DNA of 46,353 nucleotides from Candidatus Gastranaerophilales bacterium (GTDB lineage Bacteria > Cyanobacteriota > Vampirovibrionia > Gastranaerophilales > Gastranaerophilaceae), in contig CALUPP010000023.1 of the NCBI GenBank assembly GCA_944322685.1, forward strand, positions 1-46,353, read 5' to 3'. Made by a program: the position numbers and the translations under genes. Position 1 is the first letter of the stretch; each line of letters starts with the position of its first letter. Below the pieces are notes generated by a model. The model saw only the letters and a list, made by a program, of their open reading frames with translations. It was not told the origin of the DNA and did not search any database. Positions 4,469 to 46,353 of this stretch are shown one piece after another.

Positions 4469-5542
4469 ATGACAACAGAAATGCCGAACATAAGAGAATT
4501 CCACGAAGAACGCGAAATCACCCTGCTCAGCCCATACGCCGCAAAAAGCCGGTTTTCAAAGGGTAGAAAAAGAGCAGAAGAACCGTGTCCTATCCGTACG
4601 GAATTTCAGCGTGATAAAGACAGAATAATTCACTCAAAAGCGTTCAGGCGCCTAAAACACAAAACACAAGTCTTCTTTTCTCCCACAAACGACCATTACA
4701 GAACAAGAATGACCCACACACTTGAGGTTTCACAGATTGCAAGAACAATAACAAGAGCCCTGAACCTCAATGAAGACCTCGCAGAAGCCATTGCGCTCGG
4801 CCACGACCTCGGTCACACCCCATTCGGGCACAGCGGCGAAGATGTGCTCAATGAAATAATGTTCGGGGGCTTCCGCCACGCAGAACACAGCGTCAGAGTG
4901 GTTACATTGATAGAAGATTTGAACCTGACGCAAGAAACCATCGACGGAATCCTCAATCACTCGGGTTCTTTGAAAAAAGAAAGCAAAGCTTTCACCCTTG
5001 AGGGCAAAATCGTAAAACTTTCGGACAAAATCGCTTACATAAACCACGATATCGACGACGCAATGCGAGCAGGCATTATAAAAGAAGAAGACCTCCCACA
5101 AGATTGCATAAAATACTTTTCGCTCGACAGAAGCGAACGTATAACAAAAATGGTCGCGGATATCGTCCAAAACAGCTACGGAAAAGACAAAATCACAATG
5201 TCGGAAGAAACTTTCTTCTACATAAACAAGCTCAGAACCTGGATGTTCAAAAACGTTTACACAAATTCGCTCGCAAAAAAGGAAGAAGGCAAGGTAAAAG
5301 GCATAATCAAAGGACTTTTTGACCATTATGAGGAACTTTTGAGAAAAACCTACCCCAACCAAAACGAAGAAGAAATCCGCCGCACCGTCTGCGACTACAT
5401 TGCAGGCATGACAGACCGATATGCGGTGCAAAAATACAAGGAAATCTTCATCCCGCAATCTTTGCAAGACGTCAGCAACGACAATTTCCTTTTCACGCTT
5501 GCAAAAATCAACAATCTCAGTGTACAATTGAGCGTCTTATAA
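4469..5542 (+). CDS. dgt: dGTPase-like triphosphohydrolase
   Basis: A 357-residue HD-domain enzyme of the deoxyguanosinetriphosphate triphosphohydrolase-like group, which splits dNTPs into deoxynucleosides and triphosphate. Visible motifs are the N-terminal FQRDKDRIIHSKAFRRLKHKTQVF, then HTLEV (first metal His), ALGHDLGHTPFGH (the HD pair plus the following His) and a late Asp in KLSDKIAYINHDIDD. Length matches the shorter type-2 subfamily rather than E. coli Dgt (about 500 residues). A near-leaderless start is discussed under its promoter. metX follows after 15 bases. Confidence 0.88.
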   Translation: MTTEMPNIREFHEEREITLLSPYAAKSRFSKGRKRAEEPCPIRTEFQRDKDRIIHSKAFRRLKHKTQVFFSPTNDHYRTRMTHTLEVSQIARTITRALNLNEDLAEAIALGHDLGHTPFGHSGEDVLNEIMFGGFRHAEHSVRVVTLIEDLNLTQETIDGILNHSGSLKKESKAFTLEGKIVKLSDKIAYINHDIDDAMRAGIIKEEDLPQDCIKYFSLDRSERITKMVADIVQNSYGKDKITMSEETFFYINKLRTWMFKNVYTNSLAKKEEGKVKGIIKGLFDHYEELLRKTYPNQNEEEIRRTVCDYIAGMTDRYAVQKYKEIFIPQSLQDVSNDNFLFTLAKINNLSVQLSVL

Positions 5543-5557
5543 AATCAGGAGTTTTAA

Positions 5558-6679
5558 ATGGGCTCGGTCGGAATAGTTGAAACCCGAAATTTCCATATAG
5601 ATGAAAAAATCAAACTCGAATCGGGAATTGAATTCGGCCCGATTGATGTTGCTTACGAAACTTACGGAAAACTCAACGAAAATAAAGACAACGCAATCCT
5701 GCTGCTCCACGCCCTCACAGGCGACGCCCATGCAGCAGGGAAACACGGCGAAAACGACAAAAAACGCGGCTGGTGGGATGATATGGTCGGCCCGTACAAG
5801 GCTTTTGACACAAACAAATACTTTGTAATCGCCTCAAACATGCTGGGCGGCTGCTCGGGCACAACCGGCCCCTGTTCAATAAATCCAGAGACAGGGAATC
5901 CTTACGGATTGGACTTTCCGGTCATAACAATCGAAGATACGGTCAAAGTCCAAAGAAAACTGGTCGATTCTTTCGGAATAAAAAAATTAATCGTCGCAGG
6001 CGGCTCAATGGGAGGAATGCAAGCGCTCGAATGGGCAACCTCCCAGACTGACCTCGTGGAATCAACAATAATAATTGCCTCAACATCCCGCCTGACCGCA
6101 CAAGGCATAGCGTTCAACGCCGTAGGCCGAAACGCAATCCTCTCCGACCCGAATTTTAACAACGGAAACTATTACGGAAGCGAAAAACAGCCCGAAAAAG
6201 GTCTTTCAATCGCAAGAATGGTCGGACACATAACCTATCTTTGCGAAGAAGCGATGCACAGCAAATTCGGACGCCGTTTTCAGGACAAAGATACCCCGAA
6301 TTTCGACTTCAACATCGATTTTCAGGTCGAAAGCTACCTTGAACACCAGGGCAGAACCTTTGTTGACCGGTTTGACGCAAACAGCTACCTGTATATCACA
6401 AAAGCAGTGGATTATTTCGACTTAGCGAAAAAATACGGCTCGCTTGAGGCCGCATTTAAGAACACAAATTCAAAATTTCTCATAATGTCGTTCACTTCTG
6501 ACTGGCTTTTCCCGACTTCACAGTCAAAAGAAATCGTAAAAGCCCTGATAAAAGCCGGAAAAGACGTTTCTTTCTGCGAAATCGAATCGCCCTGCGGCCA
6601 TGACGCATTTCTTCTGGAATTTGAAACCCAGACAAAAATAGTAAAAAGCTTTCTCTCAAAAGGAGAAAAAAATGGATAA
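5558..6679 (+). CDS. metX: Homoserine O-acyltransferase (MetX family)
   Basis: A 373-residue alpha/beta hydrolase. It activates the homoserine hydroxyl for methionine synthesis. Evidence is [14 protein letters not shown] near the N-terminus, the nucleophile elbow [13 protein letters not shown], the catalytic Asp in FTSDWLFP and the catalytic His in CGHDAFLLE. Whether the acyl donor is acetyl- or succinyl-CoA cannot be judged safely from these motifs. It sits 15 bases after dgt, with an AGGAG ribosome site, and overlaps metW by eight bases. hom and thrC lie about 28 kb away in the same window. Confidence 0.92.
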
Positions 6680-7295
6680 AAAACACGAAAAATCAACAGG
6701 CTTGCACCTCAATTACGAAATAATCACGAAAATCATCGAAGAAAACTCAAAAATCCTCGACCTTGGCTGCGGTGACGGCACACTTTTGAAAATGCTCATC
6801 GAAAGAAAAAATTGCACCGGCTCAGGCATAGAAATCGACCAGAAAAACGCGATTTCTGCGATAGAAAAAGGTCTTTCCATAATTCAGGGCGACATTGACG
6901 AGGGTCTGCAAGACTTTTCTGACAACGAATACGATTACATAATCCTTAACCAAACGCTCCAATCAACAGAAAAGCCCGATTACGTAATCGAAGAAATGCT
7001 CAGGGCCGGCAAAAAAGCTGTCGTCAGTTTTCCGAATTTTGCCTACTGGAAAGTCAGATTTTACCTGTTTTTTAAAGGAAAAATGCCAAAATCCGATCTT
7101 TTGCCGTTCGAATGGTACAACACGCCCAACATCCACCTTTTGACAATAAAAGATTTCTTCGAATTTTGCAAAAAACGTAACATAAAAATCCTAAAAGAAG
7201 TCTACCTGAACAACTCCCAAATAATCAGCAATTTCAGAACAAAATGGCACAAAAACCTCTTTGCACAGGAAGCTATTTTTGTAATTTCACAATAA
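6672..7295 (+). CDS. metW: Methionine biosynthesis protein MetW
   Basis: A 207-residue class I SAM-dependent methyltransferase-like protein. The SAM-binding glycine loop is [12 protein letters not shown], followed by GIEID and the family pattern [11 protein letters not shown] and [16 protein letters not shown]. MetW is encoded next to metX in many bacteria and has been linked to MetX activity; its own substrate is not settled. The eight-base overlap with metX indicates coupling, with a GGAGAAAAA ribosome site inside the metX end. Full length. Confidence 0.9.
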
Positions 7296-9757: not shown

Positions 9758-11230
9758 CTACGATTTTGAGGCTTCTTTTTCCAAATCATTTATATTTTCG
9801 CTTGCATCAGCGTATTCTTTGACTTTTTTGGTCGTAATTTTCTTGCTGTTCAAGCAGGCCGCACCGCCAACGCATCCGCCGGGGCACGCCATGACTTCAA
9901 CGAGATTTCCTAACGGGCAGGCGCCTTTTTTGGCCCACTGCTTCATCTCTCTGACCGATTTTGTGTTCAAACCGTCAACGCAAGTCGGGAAAATTTCAGT
10001 GAAATCTTTGCTTGCCACCTTAACAGACTCGGCAACTCCGCCTGTAACAGCGAAATTTCGGCCTTCTTTTGATGCTTTGGCTTCAAATTCATAATCTTCA
10101 AGCTCCGCAAGCTGAATTCCGAACGCAACAAAAAGCGCACCCATTTCTTCAAAGTTGAGAACATAATCTGTGTACTCATCTTTTTGCGCCTCTTTGCGTT
10201 TTGCCACGCACGGCCCGACAAAAACGGTTACGCAATCGGGATCTTGCTCTTTTGCGAGTTTCGCCGTGTAGTGCATCGGTGTTCTTGTTTCTGAACGGAA
10301 CGGTTTGAGCTCGGGAACATGCTTTTCAACCAGCTCATTGTAAGCAGCACAGCAAGATGTCGTCATAAACTCATCTCCGCGCTCCATTCTTTCTTTAAAG
10401 TCCTCTGCTTCCGTTCTGGCCGTGATATCAGCGCCTTCTGCGACCTCCATCACCTTGTCAAAGCCGACTTTTATCAATCCTTGCGCAATTTTGTTGATTG
10501 AAACCGGCAGCTGACCCACAACAGCAGGCGCAACCATCGCAACTACCTTTTTATTTGAGCGCATTACTTTGAGAATATCAAAAACCTGACTTTTCTCCTG
10601 AACGGCCGCAAACGGACAAGCCGCCTCGCACGCACCGCAGCTTATACATTTTTCAAAATCGATTTCAGCATGTCCTGCTTCGTTTTTGGTGATTGCACCG
10701 ACCGGACAAGCGTCTTCGCAGGGCACTTTCAGCTTGACAATTGCGCTGTACGGGCAAACCTGTATGCACATTCCGCAGTTTTTGCATTTATCACCGTCAA
10801 TAACCGATTTTCCGTTCTGCACAGAAATTGCACCGAACTTACAAACCTGTGTACAAGGCCTTGCAACGCATCCCTGGCACAAATCCGTAACATAAACACG
10901 GCTCGGAACGCAGCCCTTGCAGGCAGTTTCCACAACGGTCAGAATATCTTCGTCCGGTTTTTGTCTTTCGGCAGCTTTTTGCGCATATTCAGACAACATC
11001 GTGATTTCGTCATCATTTTCAACGCTGTGCCCGAGTCCGGCGATAGCTCTTTGGCGCAAAATCGCTCTTTCCTTGTGAATACAGCATCTAAACGGAACTT
11101 CCGCATTTTTCGGACGCATTTCAAAAGGAATTTTGTCCACTGCTTTGTCTAAATCATTTTTTAGGTAGGCCTTTATTAACCTGACCAATACTTCTCTTTT
11201 AAGGTGTGTTGTATTGCTTTGGTTATCCAT
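9758..11230 (-). CDS. [FeFe] hydrogenase, catalytic type (group B-like)
   Basis: A 490-residue iron-only hydrogenase interconverting protons and H2 with ferredoxin-level electrons. Four-Cys cluster motifs run C104-C130, C149-C159, C171-C175 and C195-C205, giving several 4Fe-4S clusters. The H-cluster motifs are TSCCAAY (291-297), VGPCVAKRKE (L2, Cys341) and ACPGGC (L3, Cys449 and Cys453). All four cubane-ligating cysteines and the adjacent proton-relay Cys of TSCC are present. The motif variants (AAY instead of PxW, GPC instead of MPC) fit group B rather than group A enzymes. It overlaps the upstream 2Fe-2S gene by eight bases. Maturases HydE/F/G are not in the window. Confidence 0.9.
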   Translation of the reverse strand: MDNQSNTTHLKREVLVRLIKAYLKNDLDKAVDKIPFEMRPKNAEVPFRCCIHKERAILRQRAIAGLGHSVENDDEITMLSEYAQKAAERQKPDEDILTVVETACKGCVPSRVYVTDLCQGCVARPCTQVCKFGAISVQNGKSVIDGDKCKNCGMCIQVCPYSAIVKLKVPCEDACPVGAITKNEAGHAEIDFEKCISCGACEAACPFAAVQEKSQVFDILKVMRSNKKVVAMVAPAVVGQLPVSINKIAQGLIKVGFDKVMEVAEGADITARTEAEDFKERMERGDEFMTTSCCAAYNELVEKHVPELKPFRSETRTPMHYTAKLAKEQDPDCVTVFVGPCVAKRKEAQKDEYTDYVLNFEEMGALFVAFGIQLAELEDYEFEAKASKEGRNFAVTGGVAESVKVASKDFTEIFPTCVDGLNTKSVREMKQWAKKGACPLGNLVEVMACPGGCVGGAACLNSKKITTKKVKEYADASENINDLEKEASKS

Positions 11231-11477
11231 TGATTTTACTTTCTATTGCTTTCAATACTTTCTCAACTGTTGCTTCAGAAATGATTTCACCGTCAATTTT
11301 AACAAACGGAGCTTTCATATATGTCGTATCATTGCATAAATCAAGGCAAGTAGCCGCCTTAACGTCCACTCTGCTTTTGAACTGAGGGGGGAGCGAAGAC
11401 TCCAAATCCTGCAATTTTGATGCACCCATTACAAAGCAGGTTGTTCCCAGACATATTTCTACGCTAATCTTTTCCAT
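11223..11477 (-). CDS. NuoE/HydC-like thioredoxin-fold [2Fe-2S] protein
   Basis: An 84-residue small ferredoxin of the thioredoxin fold. It has the four-Cys pattern C9-x4-C14 and C44-x3-C48, the 2Fe-2S signature of the 24-kDa NADH dehydrogenase subunit and of HydC. It lacks the N-terminal helical part of NuoE. It probably passes electrons to or from the adjacent hydrogenase, whose start it overlaps by eight bases. A GGAGG ribosome site stands four bases before the ATG. An 82-base gap separates it from the phosphatase gene upstream. Confidence 0.85.
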   Translation of the reverse strand: MEKISVEICLGTTCFVMGASKLQDLESSLPPQFKSRVDVKAATCLDLCNDTTYMKAPFVKIDGEIISEATVEKVLKAIESKING

Positions 11478-11559
11478 TAATCCTCCATTCGAGTTTTTGA
11501 CTGTTTTTTGCCGAAAACGTTATTTTTCAACATATCCCGGCAGGTGAAAGCACGCTGAA

Positions 11560-12735
11560 CTAAATAAATTGCAGGTGCACTTTCTTAATATAACGCTCTG
11601 AAAGAATTTTTTCCAGTTGTTTTACAACATTTTTACGAATCGCAAGCTCAACCGGCAAATCAGGGTCATAATGCGCCTGATTTAACTTGGTTCCGACCAT
11701 AAAATCAATACAATCGGAATCCAAAAACATATTTACAAGCTTTCCGGCTGCGTCATCGGGCATATTTTTGCAGTCATCGTTCAAATATTCAACCGCTTTT
11801 GTGAGGGTCAAAATGCCCTCCGTAACCAAATCAACGCCCTCCATTTTTGAGCAGGCAGGCAAATTTCCGCCCGAAAAACGTTCGGTTTCTACCGTTCTTC
11901 CGAGCTCACGTGCAAGAAGATTCGCCGTTGTACCGCCAGAAATCGCTTTCTTCCCGTCAAAATCATCAAAAATCTTTGCATATTCCGCATCCCGCTCCGA
12001 ATAATACGGCGGGCCCGTGAAAAGCAGCATTTTTCTCGGCTTTCTGAAATACAAAACAGCGCAGGAAATATCGTCCTTTGCCGTATGCCCGGGTTCTTTG
12101 ATTTCAGCCGCACGCACGACATTATGCGCAAGATGCCGGCTTGAAATCGTCTTGTCTTTTTCAATTTCATGCAAAACAAACTCAATAAGCCCCTCTCGCC
12201 GCCAGCCGAGCTTATATTCCGGCGACCCCATCCCGGCCTGCGTTACACCGTCCGAACAAAACAACAGCCTGTCCTCCGGTTCGAGCTTTATTTTGTACAA
12301 ATGCATGTGCCTGTTTGTAAATTTCTTTGAAGTGATGACTTTTGCTTCATGTTCGACAATTTTCCCGCCGCGAATGTGCAGAAAATCAGGATTTCCCTCC
12401 TCAACAATCTTCACTTCGCCGTTATCATTGCAATCAACAACCGAAAACGTCGCATAGCTGATTTTTCGCACCTGACAAACAGGCAATGAGTTCATAATAA
12501 CCTCGGTCGCTTTCATAATATCACGCCCTTCGGCAATAAACTTTGTAATCATCGTCGCGGTCATATTCGCAAGAATATTCGCCTTAATCCCGCTCCCGAG
12601 CCCGTCAGAAAGCACGGCAATAACACGCCCCTCCGCAGGATAGCGTTTTGACATAAAGCAGTCGCCGAAAGTATTTTGACCGTTCTTTTTTTCCTGAAAA
12701 CAGTCAACATCTATGAAAAACTGTTCTTCCGTCAA
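11560..12735 (-). CDS. SpoIIE-type PP2C protein phosphatase of the hydrogenase locus
   Basis: A 391-residue protein. Residues 1-230 form a SpoIIE/PP2C-like Ser/Thr phosphatase domain with metal-binding acidic motifs: FGDCF, SDGLGSG (early), FCSDGVTQ (middle) and KDDISCAVL (about 225). The remaining 155 residues form a separate C-terminal domain with GGTTANLLARELGR and VDLVTEGILTLTKAVEYL, not recognised as a known fold. The start is a TTG overlapping the sensory hydrogenase stop (TTGA), so translation is tightly coupled. In HydDB terms, sensory [FeFe] hydrogenases linked to such phosphatases form group C3. The likely role is to convert an H2 or redox signal into dephosphorylation of an unknown target. 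Confidence 0.85.
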   Translation of the reverse strand: MTEEQFFIDVDCFQEKKNGQNTFGDCFMSKRYPAEGRVIAVLSDGLGSGIKANILANMTATMITKFIAEGRDIMKATEVIMNSLPVCQVRKISYATFSVVDCNDNGEVKIVEEGNPDFLHIRGGKIVEHEAKVITSKKFTNRHMHLYKIKLEPEDRLLFCSDGVTQAGMGSPEYKLGWRREGLIEFVLHEIEKDKTISSRHLAHNVVRAAEIKEPGHTAKDDISCAVLYFRKPRKMLLFTGPPYYSERDAEYAKIFDDFDGKKAISGGTTANLLARELGRTVETERFSGGNLPACSKMEGVDLVTEGILTLTKAVEYLNDDCKNMPDDAAGKLVNMFLDSDCIDFMVGTKLNQAHYDPDLPVELAIRKNVVKQLEKILSERYIKKVHLQFI

Positions 12736-14450
12736 TCCTTATTCTCCGTATTTTCTTCGTAACCCTCTGCAATCTGACTCAAAAGCAGCTCCGTATCAAC
12801 CATGTGCTCGCCCAGAAGACAAGCAATGTTCTGAACGGTAGCTATATTCTTCTCGATTACCTCATGAGCCTTTTTCGCAATCTGATCGCGCTTCATTTCG
12901 GTTTTGGTAACATCAGTTATTACCGCTCCGACGATTTTATTGCGCTCAATCTCAAAGACGGTAATATCATACAGGTTGTTCCCGACAGAATAACGCTCTT
13001 TGTGGATATCCTGCCCTGATGAAAGCACCCGCCTGAAAAAGTCGCCAAACGGAATTATCCGCTCAAGCGCCCCGCCGGCAAGCCCCTCGGGACGGCTGTT
13101 GAAAATCTCAACAAGATCGGGCGCAAACATCTTAACAAATGCCTCATTTGCCTCAATAATGTTCAAATTTGCATCCGCCATAACAATCGCCGACGGCATA
13201 CATCTCAGCATTGCGCTTGCCTTTCTGATTGCGAGCTTTCTCATGTATGAAGTACACATCGAAGGCTCCGCATCCCCGTCCAGAAGCGCTTCCGCAAGCT
13301 GTCTGCAAGTATCATACCCGCATCCGCCGCAATTCAGCTCATCTTCGGGCGCATGTTTGCCGATGGAGGCCATTGCTTCAAAAATTTCCTCCGCAGTATG
13401 GGGCTTTTTCTCAACCGGATCTTTCGGATAAACTTTTTCCACAACAACAGCCGGCTCTGACGGAATTTGAGGCCTAAATTTAATATTCCGCATGATGTCA
13501 GACATAGTCAGCACACCCGGCTTTTCCAAAACCTTACAAGGCCCGTTAGCGCAGCCGCCATCGCAGGCCAATGCTTCGATAAATATCGTTCTGTCGACTT
13601 TTTCCGTATCCAAATTCTGCAAAGATTCACGAAAAGCCGCAATTCCGCTCACGCTTACCAGCTGGATATCCTTTGCCGTGCCGGAAAGGCGCAAAGTCTT
13701 GTTCATACCGCCTTCTATCGGATAATATGCCCCCTCATAAGCATCATAAGGCACAAATCGCGGTTTTTTCTCGGGCTCAACCTCATTAGGGTCAATTCCC
13801 TCCGCCTCAAACCACTGCATAAGCTCAATAAACGTCAAGGAAACATCAATCAGCTCCGGGTTGTGGTCAGATTCGTTCTTTTTCGCAATACAAGGGCCGA
13901 TAAAAATAACACCGATATTCTCACCGAGCTCTTTTTTCAATAGTTTTGCATGAGTAAGCGCCGGAGAAGCAATCGGTGTGATATATTTTGCAAATTTCGG
14001 CATATGAATCCGCACAAAATCTACAATCGCAGGACATGCGCTCGAAATGTGAATCTGTTTTTCGCGTTTTGAGAGAATTTTCGTTACCTCAATAGAAACC
14101 TCCTGCGCACCCAGCGCGGTTTCAGAAACACCGGCAAATCCCAGCTTTTTGAGCGCAGTAATGAACTTTTCCTCGGGAATGTCAAAAAATCCCGCCCAGC
14201 TCGGAGCAATCGACACGTAAACCTCTTTTTTTGCCGTCAAAACCGCCCGTGCTTTGTTCAAATCTTCTCTCACGCGCTTCGCATGCGCAGGACAAATCGT
14301 AACACAATGCCCGCAGGCAACGCATTTTTCAGGAATTACCGAAGCATGCCCGTTTTCTATGCGAATTGCCTTGACTGAGCATTGCCTGACGCACTTATAA
14401 CAATCCACACACTCATTTTGGAGCGTGTAAACAGGATACAGATTATTCAT
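12732..14450 (-). CDS. Sensory [FeFe] hydrogenase with PAS domain (HydS-like)
   Basis: A 572-residue protein. An N-terminal two-cluster ferredoxin has Cys 14, 17, 20, 24 and 43, 46, 49, 53. The H-cluster domain follows: L1 is SSACPAIV (136-143), L2 is GPCIAKKNE (Cys187) and L3 is ALACDGGC (Cys296, Cys300). In L1 the proton-relay Cys of TSCC is Ala, typical of sensory group C rather than fast catalytic enzymes. A third 4Fe-4S motif, CGGCGYDTC (374-382) plus Cys399, and a PAS domain (about 412-525) complete it. There is no kinase or cyclase domain; output probably runs through the overlapping phosphatase gene. It likely senses H2 or redox state in the cytoplasm. Confidence 0.88.
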   Translation of the reverse strand: MNNLYPVYTLQNECVDCYKCVRQCSVKAIRIENGHASVIPEKCVACGHCVTICPAHAKRVREDLNKARAVLTAKKEVYVSIAPSWAGFFDIPEEKFITALKKLGFAGVSETALGAQEVSIEVTKILSKREKQIHISSACPAIVDFVRIHMPKFAKYITPIASPALTHAKLLKKELGENIGVIFIGPCIAKKNESDHNPELIDVSLTFIELMQWFEAEGIDPNEVEPEKKPRFVPYDAYEGAYYPIEGGMNKTLRLSGTAKDIQLVSVSGIAAFRESLQNLDTEKVDRTIFIEALACDGGCANGPCKVLEKPGVLTMSDIMRNIKFRPQIPSEPAVVVEKVYPKDPVEKKPHTAEEIFEAMASIGKHAPEDELNCGGCGYDTCRQLAEALLDGDAEPSMCTSYMRKLAIRKASAMLRCMPSAIVMADANLNIIEANEAFVKMFAPDLVEIFNSRPEGLAGGALERIIPFGDFFRRVLSSGQDIHKERYSVGNNLYDITVFEIERNKIVGAVITDVTKTEMKRDQIAKKAHEVIEKNIATVQNIACLLGEHMVDTELLLSQIAEGYEENTENKD

Positions 14451-15206: not shown

Positions 15207-15938
15207 CTAAGCTTTAAATTTAACATCCTTTTTTATCAAAAGGCTGAAAGGGTCATTTTCTTGCTGCGCTAGTTCTGTTTTTACCGGCTCAGCGGGTGCG
15301 GAAGCTTTTACTTCGTCTTTTTTATCGGCTTTTTCTGGTTTTTGCTGCGGTTGTTCAGCACCGAGTTTTTTTGCAGCCTGCTTTTTCTCGCGTTTTTCAA
15401 GCTGCTCTTTAAATATACCGGCCATCGGTGTCGACAGGAACGGAACAATTACACGTTTTGCGATAACCTGCGTTACAAGAAGCACCGCCATAACCTTGAA
15501 ACCGGCTTTTGCCCATTTTTTGTTGGCTTCCATACCTTTTATTACCTGGTCTTCCTGATAATTAAGGCCGGCAGCCTGCATACGCTGGTGAAGATTTTTT
15601 GCTGCGTCTTTGCTGAACAGTTTTTTGCCAAACCAATTGTCAAAAAGCTTTGATGAATAGTTGTTAATCAAAGAACCGAGTGCAAACTGAATAACAACGT
15701 TCAGAATACCGTTTGAAAGGTCAATTCCGGCAACGAATTTTCTTTTTTCTTCAGGAATCTTTTTGTTATTCAAACTTTGAGTTACATAATAGTAGCAGTT
15801 TACAGCATCTTTTGTTGTTGTCGAAATCAACGCCAATTTTGCCGCAATATCCGTCGGATTGTCCGGAATAATCTTTCTCATTGTGTTTGAATTGAGAACA
15901 TTGTTGTAAAAATTTCTCATATTTATTACAGGAGCCAT
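15207..15938 (-). CDS. Unrecognised membrane-associated protein
   Basis: A 243-residue protein with no recognised family. Two hydrophobic stretches are visible: about 70-95 (GILNVVIQFALGSLI) and about 145-175 (FKVMAVLLVTQVIAKRVIVPFL), each long enough to cross the membrane. The last 60 residues are Lys/Ala/Pro/Gln-rich and probably disordered. No signal peptide was seen. The ATG overlaps the stop codon of the upstream gene by one base (TAATG), so the two proteins are made together and may act as a complex. Probably lineage-specific. Confidence 0.75.
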   Translation of the reverse strand: MAPVINMRNFYNNVLNSNTMRKIIPDNPTDIAAKLALISTTTKDAVNCYYYVTQSLNNKKIPEEKRKFVAGIDLSNGILNVVIQFALGSLINNYSSKLFDNWFGKKLFSKDAAKNLHQRMQAAGLNYQEDQVIKGMEANKKWAKAGFKVMAVLLVTQVIAKRVIVPFLSTPMAGIFKEQLEKREKKQAAKKLGAEQPQQKPEKADKKDEVKASAPAEPVKTELAQQENDPFSLLIKKDVKFKA

Positions 15939-17383
15939 TATTCAGCCTCCTTTCCTGACATTTCGGCAGCTTTTTCGGCTTCGGCCTTTTTCTGCACGCT
16001 GGCTTTCTTTGCCTCAGTCAACTCAGGGAAAAATCTTTCCATAATCCTTGGATAAGACCAGTTCAAAATACCGCAGGTAAACGGCAGAATCAAAAGCCCG
16101 ACAATAATACCGGATTTTTTCTTGTAATCCGAAAGAATCTGTTCGGCGCGATTAATTCTTACCTTGAGCCATTTTTTTATTTTTACGCTCTGTAAAACTT
16201 CTTTTCTGTTAGAGCCGTGATATCTTACGCGCTCAATACTTCCTGCTCTTTCCATTTTTTCAATAGCAGAATTCAAAACTTCGGCTTTTGCACGTTTTTC
16301 AGCCATTTGAGCAGCTTTTTCCGTTTCCTCAAGCCCATCAGCCTTAGCAAGCGCAACAACTTCCTGCTCAATAGCAGCCATTTCCTGCTGCATTGTTTTT
16401 ATTGTATCTGCAAATATTTTTTTCTTAGCATTGTTTATTGCTTCGGTTTTATTTTTAACTTCCGGATTGTCATATATTTCTTTGCTCTTTTCTTCTGCAA
16501 GTGCAAGCATTTTGTCAAGCCTTGATGAGGTTTCAACCTTGATATTTGTTTCCATTTCAAGCTGTTTGAGCACTTTTTCTTCGGCAATTTCCTCAGCGCG
16601 GCGCTCAATATCTTCGGTGAGCTTTTTAACGTCGATACGCTTGGATTTTATGATGCTTTTGCCCTTTTTCTTGAATGAATCAAGGTCTTTCATCTCGCCG
16701 AGTTCAGCATCTGTTACTTTATAATCTTTTTTAATAAGCTCTCTGAACGCAGAAACCCTTGCATCCTGGAATTCTTTAGGCTTAATCAAGTCAGCCACCG
16801 GAATTTCTGTATTCGCCATCTCTTTTCTGTACCGATTCAGCTCGGAATAGAACGCCTCATCTTGATAATGTTGAAGTCTTTGTTTGAAAAATGCCCTTTT
16901 GGACATAAATTCTTTACCGTTCAACGCTGCCTGGGCCTTTTCATGTTTATATTCAGCATTAATGAGTTTTCTGAGCGCAGATTCTTTCGGTTTTGCCCTC
17001 AAATCCATACGATCAGTGCCCAAATAAGTAGCATGCCTGTCCAGCATATCGTTATATTTGCTCATAACAAGCAGCTGAACCCCGAGGTTAATCACTGCCG
17101 AAATAGGCTGACGCCAAGCGGTATAAGCTTTTGTTTTGTTATCTTCATGTGAAAGCGGGTTATATCTGATAAAAATCGGCGCAACTGCGGAAGTACCTAT
17201 CGCCGTAACAACGTTGTTTAAGTTTTCACCGTTGTTTGTACCCAAATACTGTAAACCTTTTTGGATTCCCTTGCTGTGTTCATACATATCTTGGCCGAGT
17301 TTTCTCAACGCAACCCAGTTGCCGAAATTCGGACGGGCACTCCGCCTCAAACTCACACTATTTAAATCATTTCGCACTTCCAT
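15938..17383 (-). CDS. Unrecognised coiled-coil membrane protein
   Basis: A 481-residue protein of no recognised family. The N-terminus carries the short segment RPNFGNWVALRKLG, an 'FG' motif seen in other proteins of this window. A weakly hydrophobic stretch lies at about 85-115 (ISAVINLGVQLLVMSKY). Residues 130-400 are long, charged, Lys/Glu/Ala-rich helices likely to form coiled coil. A hydrophobic segment at about 425-450 (GIIVGLLILPFTCGIL) could be a membrane anchor, followed by a short Lys/Ala/Glu tail. It is translationally coupled to the 243-residue gene downstream and divergent from ftsZ. A structural or envelope role is possible but not shown. Confidence 0.75.
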   Translation of the reverse strand: MEVRNDLNSVSLRRSARPNFGNWVALRKLGQDMYEHSKGIQKGLQYLGTNNGENLNNVVTAIGTSAVAPIFIRYNPLSHEDNKTKAYTAWRQPISAVINLGVQLLVMSKYNDMLDRHATYLGTDRMDLRAKPKESALRKLINAEYKHEKAQAALNGKEFMSKRAFFKQRLQHYQDEAFYSELNRYRKEMANTEIPVADLIKPKEFQDARVSAFRELIKKDYKVTDAELGEMKDLDSFKKKGKSIIKSKRIDVKKLTEDIERRAEEIAEEKVLKQLEMETNIKVETSSRLDKMLALAEEKSKEIYDNPEVKNKTEAINNAKKKIFADTIKTMQQEMAAIEQEVVALAKADGLEETEKAAQMAEKRAKAEVLNSAIEKMERAGSIERVRYHGSNRKEVLQSVKIKKWLKVRINRAEQILSDYKKKSGIIVGLLILPFTCGILNWSYPRIMERFFPELTEAKKASVQKKAEAEKAAEMSGKEAE

Positions 17384-42390: not shown

Positions 42391-42674
42391 TTCTTACCTC
42401 TCGTCTTTACATATTTTAAAAAAAACATAAAAAAAAAGCCATACCCGTCTACTCCGTTTGAATTAGACGAAATAATGTGAAATTCTATTCAAGGGTGCGG
42501 ATTTTGCATTAAAAGGCAGGACATTTGCGCTCATTGCAGTTTTTTCACGCTTAATAACCGGCGGAAATTGCAATAAATATTGAAAAATGTGTTCAAAAAT
42601 AATTACTTAAAAATTATTTAAGCTTTTTGGCTCTACAACACACCAATATCCAGATTTTCCCCTCCGGACAGAAA

Positions 42675-42973
42675 AACATTGCCACCCACAAGAAAAAGCC
42701 GGGGATTTCCTTTGGAGTGACTATGGAGGAGCCGGCTTTTTTCGTTCTTTTTTACATTTATTGCCCTTCCGGCGGGGGAATCGGAACGGAAAAGGAAATT
42801 TCCGGCCGGAGCAACCACCAAAACCGCCAAACCTGAATAACATTGCCATCCACAAGAAAAAGCCGGGGATTTTCTTTGCAGTGACTATGGAGGAACCGGA
42901 TTTTTTCGTTTTTTCTTGCATTCTTTGCCCCCTCCGGCGGGGGAATCGGAACGGAAAAGGAAATCCCCGGCTG
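42675..42973. repeat. Tandem pair of long palindromic elements, period about 164 bases
   Basis: Two imperfect copies of an element start at 42675 and 42839. Each begins with AACATTGCCA and contains a left arm (42697-42714; 42861-42877) that is the reverse complement of a right arm (42791-42807; 42956-42972). The arms (core AGCCGGGGATTT...) flank about 80 bases holding a shared segment, GTGACTATGGAGGA, and a CCGGCGGGGGAATCGGAACG segment. Differences between copies tend to keep pairing by G-T wobble. The apparent minus-strand reading frame across it encodes a repeating proline/arginine-rich peptide and is not supported as a gene. The rest of the gap (42391-42626 and 42974-43078) holds no gene. 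Confidence 0.7.
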
Positions 42974-43078
42974 ACCCATTCATCAAACCTTAACATTCGT
43001 TACAAAAAATCGATTTTCAGGCAACTTTTCCCGCCCAATCGTTTTAAAATAAAAAAGTGAAGATACGGAAGTAAAAAA

Positions 43079-44098
43079 TTGATTTCTTTAAAGGTCAATC
43101 CATATAACAACCACATAGCATTTGCCCAAACCGCACAAAACACGGCGCCAGTTGCTGCATCATCGGTTTCTAAAGACGAAAATATCCGCATACAGGCTGA
43201 TGAGGCAATGAAATCGGGCTATTTTGACAGAGCAATAAAACTCTATAAACAAGCGCTGGAAATAAACCCCGAAAACACCGACGCAAACCTGAATCTTGCA
43301 AAAACCTACAAACTTAACTCGGATTTTAAAAATGCAATCCCGTATTTTGAAAAAGCCTGCGCCCAAATGCCGGATGATTTGGAAATAATGACGCTTTTAG
43401 GCGAATGTTACAAGCACAACGGCGAATACTCAAAGGCCGAAACGCAATTTAAATTGGTTTTGAACCGGGAACCTAACTACGACTACGCAAAAAGGAACCT
43501 GCTGGATACCGAAAATTTAAAACTCGCCTGCATTGACCCGCAAAAAGCCTATAACGAGCGGCAAAAAAAGGCAAACGAAAACCTAAGAACGGCGATTTCG
43601 CTTGCAACCGGCTTTTTGCCGAAAAATGTAGTAAACAAAGTCCAGGATGTGACAGTAACGTTCGATAAAACGGCCCAAATGGGCGGCCGCTCGAACATTG
43701 CGCAATACGAACACGCAAAAAGAAAGATTTCCATCCAGGATGAATACACCTACGCCGATCCAATACTTTCAGCAGCCTATACCGTGCATGAATTTATCCA
43801 TGCGGCGGACAATGACCCTTATACATCAATAAGAGAAGAACAAGACGCATACAGAATACAGGCAAAATTCTGGGATAAAAACGCAAAAAACGTCCGCGAC
43901 CCTGAAATGGACTATGTTGTGGAGCTTTATCGCGATTCTGCGGAGGCGCTGGACAAAAGAGTCGCCGAAATTTACCTGCTGCGCGACCCCGGAATCCCCG
44001 CAACGTCGTACAATCACCCGCCGGGCACGAAAAATGCCGCAGCATCAGGCCTGACAAACTCCGGAACAACACTTAAAGCTTACGATATCATCGTATAA
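43079..44098 (+). CDS. TPR-repeat protein with HEXXH metallopeptidase-like motif
   Basis: A 339-residue protein. N-terminal MISLKVNPYNNHIAFAQ is a short 'F' motif start, with no signal peptide. Three TPR units follow at about 34-67, 68-101 and 102-135 (GYFDRAIKLYKQALEINPEN and repeats). The C-terminal half (about 180-300) carries HEFIH (237-241) in VHEFIHAADND, then EEQDAYRIQAKFW (253-265), which could supply a third zinc ligand (Glu253 or 254). This order is that of zinc metallopeptidases, but the family was not recognised and activity is inferred. The start is TTG 43079; no in-frame ATG or GTG lies closer. GGAAG is the weak ribosome site. Confidence 0.78.
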   Translation: MISLKVNPYNNHIAFAQTAQNTAPVAASSVSKDENIRIQADEAMKSGYFDRAIKLYKQALEINPENTDANLNLAKTYKLNSDFKNAIPYFEKACAQMPDDLEIMTLLGECYKHNGEYSKAETQFKLVLNREPNYDYAKRNLLDTENLKLACIDPQKAYNERQKKANENLRTAISLATGFLPKNVVNKVQDVTVTFDKTAQMGGRSNIAQYEHAKRKISIQDEYTYADPILSAAYTVHEFIHAADNDPYTSIREEQDAYRIQAKFWDKNAKNVRDPEMDYVVELYRDSAEALDKRVAEIYLLRDPGIPATSYNHPPGTKNAAASGLTNSGTTLKAYDIIV

Positions 44099-45616: not shown

Positions 45617-46353
45617 ATGGACTATTTTTCGTCAAACAGCCTGATAGCACAAATGAATCACCCGCAATACGCGGCAAATAATGCTGCACAGCCCGCACAA
45701 ACAGCAGCGATTGCAGCAAATCAAACAAATCCGTCACAAAATACCGACGAATTTGTCCCCTCGAGCGCTAAAAAGGACAAAAAAGAAGCAACAACCGCCC
45801 AGAAAACAGGAATCGCAGCGGGTGTCCTCATCGGATTGACCGCAATCGGCCTGATTGCGCGGGGCAAACTGAAAACAGTCACAAAACTCGCGGAAAATAT
45901 CGAATTCAAACCGGCAAAATCAATGGAAGAAGCCGTAGAATTTGCAAAAAACCACTTAAAAATCAAAAAATTCGACACTGCCGGCGATTTGGAAATCGCA
46001 AACTGGGTCAACGAAGCGCTCGTCCGTATTAACAACAAATATAAAGGCCGAGCCTACATCCCCGACGAAGTTGCTGTTTTACCAAAAGAAGCCGCACGCG
46101 AAAATACTATCGCCGGCATGCTCAACCAAAAAAGAGGCTTTAAACTCTACTCAACGCTCTTTGTGAACACCGAAAGAGTCAACGGCTCTCAAAAAGCAAT
46201 CGAACGAATGCTCAGCAAGGAAAAAGGCTTCAATTATCAATACGATCCGGCAACAAATACCCAAACAATGAGAAGCCTGCCGTTTTTCAGCGTCGAAAAG
46301 AGCGAATATATCTTGAAACTCGCACAAGATTTCAAGAAAAACAAAATGAACAA
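45617..46353 (+). CDS. Unrecognised membrane-anchored protein, 3' end outside the window
   Basis: An open frame starts at ATG 45617 (AGGAAAAAGG ribosome site) and runs to the window end without a stop (245 codons plus two bases). A low-complexity Gln/Ala/Asn N-terminus (about 14-50) is followed by a hydrophobic helix (about 65-85, GIAAGVLIGLTAIGLIA) and then a soluble, mixed domain. TATAAT at 45585-45590 is the probable -10. The architecture (polar linker, one membrane helix, Lys-rich domain) recalls the unrecognised proteins at 15207-17383. The gap 45401-45616 holds no other gene. Confidence 0.7.
   Translation, partial: MDYFSSNSLIAQMNHPQYAANNAAQPAQTAAIAANQTNPSQNTDEFVPSSAKKDKKEATTAQKTGIAAGVLIGLTAIGLIARGKLKTVTKLAENIEFKPAKSMEEAVEFAKNHLKIKKFDTAGDLEIANWVNEALVRINNKYKGRAYIPDEVAVLPKEAARENTIAGMLNQKRGFKLYSTLFVNTERVNGSQKAIERMLSKEKGFNYQYDPATNTQTMRSLPFFSVEKSEYILKLAQDFKKNKMN

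What the first reader, a model, noticed from the sequence alone, without database searches (positions are those of the whole stretch)
43079..44098. Fusion of TPR repeats to a HEXXH motif
The order TPR x3 then VHEFIHAADND and a downstream EEQDAY segment suggests a cytoplasmic or surface metallopeptidase with a built-in substrate-binding arm. No known peptidase family was recognised, and there is no signal peptide.
Basis: partly seen in the sequence, partly recalled or inferred. Interest (0 to 1): 0.5.

Follow-up and report, generated by a model that had tools for sequence, protein, structure and literature searches.

The report
TPR-fused zincin-like enzyme, unlisted family
A non-photosynthetic relative of cyanobacteria carries a protein that joins peptide-binding repeats to what looks like a metal-dependent, probably protein-cutting domain of a family not named in the libraries checked; it is real and conserved, but its activity is unproven.

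Summary
ORF 43079-44098 (+) encodes 339 residues from a TTG start: three TPRs, then HEFIH (237-241), then EEQDAY (253-258), with no visible signal peptide. The C-terminal domain has no convincing match in Pfam, NCBIfam, PHROGs, PADLOC or PDB sequences. Detected relatives are confined to the non-photosynthetic cyanobacterial class (Gastranaerophilales and neighbours). HExxH, D244, D246, S250, E253, E254, Y258 and a distal His313 are invariant in 50 aligned homologues. AlphaFold gives a confident domain (pLDDT 93). Its fold matches are weak, but nearly all the best are HExxH zincins (selecase group, M1, M35, M34). The single best aligned chain is an alpha-ketoglutarate-dependent HExxH oxygenase with a zincin-like fold. 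I read it as a TPR-guided, probably cytoplasmic, gluzincin-like peptidase of an unlisted family (0.6). Zinc binding, peptidase activity and convergence of the third ligand are not shown. New details: a compact TPR-less paralogue in the same genome; a conserved C-terminal peptide (Y-D-x-I-A/V-COOH type) on a disordered tail; and an N-terminal F-x-G/A-like peptide that also occurs on unrelated proteins.

The parts
43079..44098 (+). Whole ORF, 339 aa, TTG start, stop included
   Evidence: TTG picked as start in 56 of 80 members by my rule; weak GGAAG 7 nt upstream
43079..43168 (+). Residues 1-30: disordered N-terminal tail; in most homologues it carries an F-x-G/A-like peptide
   Evidence: pLDDT under 50 for 1-26; a loose motif in 68 of 80 members, not in the window copy
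43169..43477 (+). Residues 31-133: three TPRs
   Evidence: Pfam, model helices
43478..43639 (+). Residues 134-187: linking helices; D135 and R139 invariant in 50
43640..43759 (+). Residues 188-227: strands of the C-domain, with invariant N206-I-A-Q209 (putative edge strand)
43787..43801 (+). H237-E-F-I-H241, putative metal-binding and catalytic motif
   Evidence: invariant H, E, H in alignment A3; one exception outside it, L055
43808..43816 (+). D244-N-D246, invariant Asp pair after the motif
   Evidence: also kept in 7 of 7 compact relatives
43835..43852 (+). E253-E-Q-D-A-Y258; E253 or E254 is the candidate third metal ligand
   Evidence: start of helix 251-268; both Glu kept in compact relatives
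44006..44017 (+). S310-Y-N-H313, distal conserved Ser and His
   Evidence: S310 and H313 invariant in A3; beta-bridge residues in both models
44069..44095 (+). Residues 331-339: conserved C-terminal peptide TLKAYDIIV on a disordered tail
   Evidence: 63 of 80 match my end pattern; Y335 86%, I338 88%

Best explanation
A probably cytoplasmic, TPR-guided metallopeptidase of an unlisted zincin family found only in non-photosynthetic cyanobacteria. The three TPRs form a groove that captures a client or partner. The C-terminal domain holds a metal ion, most likely zinc, through His237, His241 and one of Glu253/Glu254 (gluzincin-like, with a short 12-13-residue spacer), with Glu238 as general base. 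The strand N206-I-A-Q209 would bind substrate as the edge strand, and the invariant His313 would cap the metal or stabilise the transition state. The conserved C-terminal peptide may control access to the site or recruit a partner. Shown: the gene, domain order, conservation, a confident model with weak zincin-like fold matches. Inferred: metal, ligands, hydrolysis, TPR role, location, role of the tails.
For: TPRs. HExxH, D, D, S, EE, Y and distal His invariant in 50 aligned homologues and the core in 29 of 29 long members from a search not baited with the motif. Confident models, pLDDT 87.3 whole and 93.1 for the C-domain. Foldseek's first five PDB hits are minigluzincins (E 0.048-0.15, probability 0.80-0.97). 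48 of the 50 best VIA-align rows are, by title, HExxH metallopeptidases, though many rows repeat a few proteins. E253/E254 open the helix that directly follows the HExxH helix. A compact paralogue keeps the same residues.
Against: No fold hit reaches E 0.001; all but one VIA Z is under 8, which the tool warns may mean only a common arrangement; the one above 8 is an oxygenase domain, not a peptidase. Unrelated helical proteins appear in Foldseek from E 1.1 on. The third ligand was not measured. The TPR groove has few invariant residues, only A52 in all 50. L055 has a broken motif spacing. There is no activity or metal data.
Confidence: 0.6

Rival explanations
1. Not a peptidase: the zincin-like fold holds iron through HExxH plus a further residue and uses alpha-ketoglutarate to oxidise a peptide or protein delivered by the TPRs, like the alphaKG-HExxH enzymes of RiPP pathways.
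For: Best VIA-align row is the ChlB HExxH domain, Z 8.2, 143 residues, 4.7 A. Such enzymes were first annotated as metallopeptidases and have a fold reminiscent of zincins (PMC12636437, passages).
Against: No TIGR04267 match among 50 members scanned; none in the own genome; hhalign with one TIGR04267 member gives probability 0.3% and does not align the motifs (a single-sequence profile, so a weak test). No RiPP-type genes recognised by eye in the window. Profiles could miss a distant branch.
Confidence: 0.15
2. A TPR adaptor whose metal site is structural or whose catalysis is lost: it scaffolds partners rather than cutting them.
For: No activity data; patchy distribution, 31 of 99 near relatives; one homologue with a broken motif spacing (L055).
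Against: Glu238, both His, both Glu, Y258, S310 and H313 are invariant in 50 members, and the core is kept in the compact paralogues; a purely structural site would not need Glu238.
Confidence: 0.15
3. A secreted or injected effector that cuts proteins of another organism, with the disordered tails as export signals.
For: Both tails are disordered and carry conserved short peptides; some fold matches are toxin peptidases.
Against: No signal peptide by eye; no secretion genes beside it recognised by eye; the lone TPR-less paralogue and the wide keeping of one copy in some genera fit housekeeping as well. The toxin fold matches are shared by all zincins.
Confidence: 0.05

Closest known systems
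Minigluzincins: selecase, abylysin, jannalysin (with Wss1/SPRTN grouped there by PMC4559962, abstract start in listing)
   Same: Foldseek's first PDB hits; selecase Z 7.5 over 75 residues at 2.5 A; small HExxH domain
   Different: E only 0.048 at best; no sequence match; they are stand-alone domains of about 105 residues in the entries listed, ours has TPRs in front and extra helices and a distal His behind
BepA (M48 peptidase with TPRs)
   Same: HExxH peptidase with TPRs that direct it to substrates; zinc held by two His, a Glu and a plug His (PMC7950410, passages), compare the invariant distal His313
   Different: BepA has the peptidase first and TPRs after; its Glu201 lies 61 residues after His140, ours 12-13 after His241; no M48 profile match here; the HPx4R plug pattern is not met; BepA is periplasmic
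alphaKG-HExxH oxygenases (ChlB HExxH domain, TIGR04267)
   Same: Best VIA-align row, Z 8.2; HExxH in a zincin-like fold
   Different: No profile match; not in a recognised RiPP cluster; C-domain motif HExxHxxDxD...EEQDAY was not found in the one member compared
DUF6782, Tox-MPTase2, M56, M91, SprT-like (Pfam)
   Same: Weak matches around HExxH: SprT-like in 3 of 23 TPR-type members, best E 0.03; the others in 1 of 7 compact relatives each, E 0.0076-0.25
   Different: All weak and scattered; the window domain itself gives no Pfam match; DUF6782 over cut-off in 0 of 98 phylum genomes

Membership tests
TPR proteins | tandem 34-residue helix-turn-helix repeats over the Pfam cut-off | tested here: met
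Gluzincins, clan MA(E) | HExxH on a helix | tested here: met
   sequence; helix 228-244
Gluzincins, clan MA(E) | Glu as third ligand on a following helix, beside the two His | tested here: inconclusive
   E253/E254 invariant and at the start of the next helix; distances not measured
Gluzincins, clan MA(E) | zincin fold | tested here: inconclusive
   weak but consistent matches
Gluzincins, clan MA(E) | bound zinc and peptide hydrolysis | not testable with these tools
   needs purified protein
Minigluzincins (selecase group) | shared fold and sequence profile | tested here: inconclusive
   fold E 0.048-0.45; no PDB sequence match
M48 / BepA | match to the M48 profile PF01435 | tested here: not met
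   not among Pfam matches of the window protein up to E 1, best 25 of 26 shown, nor of 23 C-domains up to E 5
M48 / BepA | active-site plug HPx4R after HExxH (PMC7950410, passage) | tested here: not met
   H313-P314 is present but residue 319 is Asn, and the Pro is absent in several homologues
alphaKG-HExxH oxygenases (TIGR04267) | match to TIGR04267 | tested here: not met
   not among the 23 models matched by 50 members up to E 5; own genome 0
alphaKG-HExxH oxygenases (TIGR04267) | RiPP precursor and partner enzymes next door | tested here: inconclusive
   none recognised by eye in the window ORFs; neighbours not scanned systematically
DUF6782 (PF20573) | match over the Pfam cut-off | tested here: not met
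   window domain none; compact relative 11 bits against a cut-off of 27

The most novel reading that the evidence does not exclude
The short N-terminal F-x-G/A peptide shared by most members of this family, by gene neighbours in relatives and by other unrelated Gastranaerophilales proteins is a lineage-specific address or pro-peptide, and this TPR-zincin reads or trims it: a self-contained sorting and processing system of the non-photosynthetic cyanobacteria.
Probability: 0.05. Interest if true: 0.75.

Novelty: new variant of a known kind. Interest (0 to 1): 0.38.

Why it matters
If the domain is a peptidase, it adds an unlisted family with TPRs in front of a small HExxH domain and a very short His-to-Glu spacer, in a bacterial class with little functional annotation. 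If it oxidises peptides instead, it would extend the recent finding that HExxH in a zincin-like fold need not mean protease. Either result would improve automatic annotation, which at present recognises only the TPRs.

Tried and rejected
Family scans of the C-domain gave nothing usable. Pfam: window domain none, 13 scattered families over 23 members. NCBIfam: 23 families over 50 members, at most 5 members sharing one, none a peptidase of this kind. PADLOC: none. PHROGs: window domain only E 0.056 and 0.16; the own compact paralogue E 0.0099 to phrog_87 'metallo-protease'. Compact relatives also hit DUF2999 once at E 0.0011, judged chance. A profile search of PDB sequences gave only Orf20 at E 0.3, judged chance. 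Fold search with the whole protein was filled by TPR proteins, so the C-domain was predicted alone. Phage or mobile origin: 27 pattern matches in viral contigs, none a relative. The viral structure library gave IrrE-, SprT- and other weak matches, none at E 0.001. Operon reading: in the window the genes on either side are on the other strand. Among the 80 records in which recognised the gene, a prolyl-tRNA synthetase (named by eye) lies upstream on the same strand in 29. Two uncharacterised large proteins lie downstream on the same strand in 28 and 21, and a third faces it in 30. Several records are too short to show neighbours. Examples of the three gave no Pfam match over cut-off. Papers: none holds both Gastranaerophilales and metallopeptidase. 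Searches (10 of 83 listed; 8 of 200 listed) showed no title on this protein. MEROPS was not available.

Rows left out before a count: alignment A1 took 22 of the 28 long relatives plus the window (near-duplicates dropped). A3 and A4 took 50 of 51 representatives chosen below 80% identity; L091, with a long odd N-terminus, was dropped. L055 failed the pattern and is in neither.

Full report
What is there. The window is one contig of a 1.9 Mb genome. Its relatives in the named collection are mostly titled Candidatus Gastranaerophilales. ORF 43079-44098 (+) runs from a TTG to a stop, 339 aa. The TTG is credible: my start-picking rule gave TTG in 56, ATG in 14 and GTG in 10 of 80 members, window included, and most reading frames then begin M-[IL]-[ST]. 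A weak GGAAG lies 7 nt upstream in the window.

Domains. TPRs are over the Pfam cut-off. AlphaFold on 50 aligned homologues gives pLDDT 87.3 and pTM 0.82: TPR helix pairs from 32 to 130, linking helices to 187, three strands, the HExxH helix 228-244, helix 251-268 with E253/E254 near its start, and two further helices. Residues 1-26 and 319-339 are below pLDDT 50. The C-domain alone gives pLDDT 93.1, pTM 0.88 and the same secondary structure.

Conservation. In alignment A3 (50 members, 29-63% identity to the window protein) the invariant positions from 188 on are T198 G203 N206 I207 A208 Q209 I217 Y234 H237 E238 H241 D244 D246 S250 E253 E254 Q255 D256 A257 Y258 W265 D274 E276 D278 L283 Y284 L291 V295 Y299 D303 S310 H313. 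That set came from a scan baited with parts of the motif. The fairer check is the whole-genome search with the window's C-domain: all 35 loci examined passed a loose filter, and 29 of 29 members over 300 aa, window included, carry the full pattern. The one failure among 80 named loci is L055, HELGIH.

Two forms. A compact form (232-262 aa frames) without TPRs carries HExxHAKDxD..[ST]S..EE in 7 of 7. It is homologous to the C-domain (hhalign 98.7%). The window's own genome has one, 257 aa, on contig 77 (L184 13317-14090, minus). In 386 genomes drawn from the phylum, 64 have a match. Of these, 34 are at E 7.8e-59 or better in frames of 329-382 aa, the TPR type by length; the rest match weakly in frames of 212-364 aa. 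All 64 are the own genome or of the same family, order or class. In 99 near relatives 31 match. In the 84,980-species collection 224 stretches matched the bait patterns and 90 were confirmed. The 80 kept carry Gastranaerophilales, Melainabacteria, Cyanobacteria, Adamsella, Avigastranaerophilus or unassigned-bacterium titles, except one titled Clostridia (L060). No viral contig gave a relative.

What it resembles. By sequence, nothing convincing. By fold, Foldseek against PDB ranks selecase, abylysin and jannalysin first (E 0.048-0.15, probability 0.80-0.97). Lethal factor follows from E 0.26, and BepA, IRAP and ArdC at 1.1-1.4, mixed with unrelated helical proteins from E 1.1 on; none reaches E 0.001. 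VIA-align 2 gives the ChlB alphaKG-HExxH domain Z 8.2 (143 residues, 4.7 A), selecase 7.5 (75 residues, 2.5 A), then M1, M35, Wss1 and lethal factor entries at 6.0-6.9. By their titles, 48 of the 50 rows are HExxH metallopeptidases, though they repeat about a dozen proteins; the other two are 8s5f (ChlB) and 22ob (SjiH), whose nature I did not establish. Each match is weak, but they agree on one fold class.

Mechanism. In the model the HExxH helix ends at 244 and the next helix begins at 251. If the two pack as an antiparallel hairpin, residue 254 faces 241 and residue 258 faces 237, so E254 (or E253) and Y258 would lie beside the two histidines. This is inference; no distances were measured. 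It is the gluzincin arrangement with a short loop. S310 and H313 are invariant and form single-residue beta-bridges in both models, so this loop could cap the metal as His246 does in BepA (PMC7950410, passages) or stabilise the transition state. I favour a TPR-guided gluzincin-like peptidase (0.6). The main rival is an alphaKG-HExxH-type oxygenase, because such enzymes were first annotated as peptidases and share a zincin-like fold (PMC12636437, passages; PMC13060819, passages). Profile results speak against it but could miss a distant branch.

Tails. The last residues are conserved although the tail is disordered: Y335 86% and I338 88% in A3, against a mean of 43% for residues 319-330. By my end pattern 63 of 80 match. 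Of the 17 that do not, eight end in DTIA, DAIA or NAIA and differ at one variable position, and nine (L115, L116, L118-L124) have other ends. A recognition or self-inhibition peptide is the natural reading; it is untested. The N-terminal tail carries a loose F-x-G/A-like peptide in 68 of 80 members, not in the window copy. A strict [SNPHQT]F[KR][GA] at positions 4-34 occurs in 11 of 483 other predicted proteins from 29% of the own genome (window included), against 2.2 expected from protein bodies. Eight hits fall in positions 10-29, Poisson P 1.3e-4, but the pattern was chosen after looking and the gene calls are rough. A looser pattern on 621 predicted neighbours of the homologues showed no clear N-terminal peak.

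Verdict. A real, conserved, unlisted TPR-zincin: a new variant of a known kind rather than a new kind of system, with its chemistry open.

Noticed in passing
window 42671-42974: Two tandem copies (140 nt, spacing 164) of an intergenic repeat with inverted arms (42861-42882 / 42951-42972) upstream of the gene; a 141-base probe gave 39 matches in the own genome, many in tandem pairs or more. Looks like a dispersed palindromic (REP/MITE-like) element.
   Followed up: partly
L155 6315, L155 7968, L161 111, L170, L176 12034, L186 8890, L193 1954 (own genome); L094 8061 and L085 6591 (neighbours in relatives): Unrelated proteins begin with a short polar tail ending in S/N/P-F-K/R/G/E-G/A (such as PNFKGA, MSFKGV, PNFRGY, QNFGAK); 11 of 483 against 2.2 expected for a strict pattern chosen after looking. 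Five such own-genome proteins and relatives gave no Pfam match over cut-off.
   Followed up: partly
L184 13317-14090 (-): Compact TPR-less paralogue of the C-domain in the same genome, next to two genes that read by eye as DNA-binding regulators.
   Followed up: partly
L055, about 5401-6700 (+): Homologue with one extra residue inside the motif (HELGIH); real variant or assembly error unknown.
   Followed up: partly
window 9758-14450 (-): Three adjacent ORFs that read by eye like [FeFe]-hydrogenase-type iron-sulfur proteins with a phosphatase-like partner (translations; not scanned).
   Followed up: no
window 15207-17383 (-) and 45617-46351 (+): Large proteins without a Pfam match in the two scanned (15938-17383 and 45617-46351); the first begins with a PNFG peptide, the second runs off the contig.
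   Followed up: no
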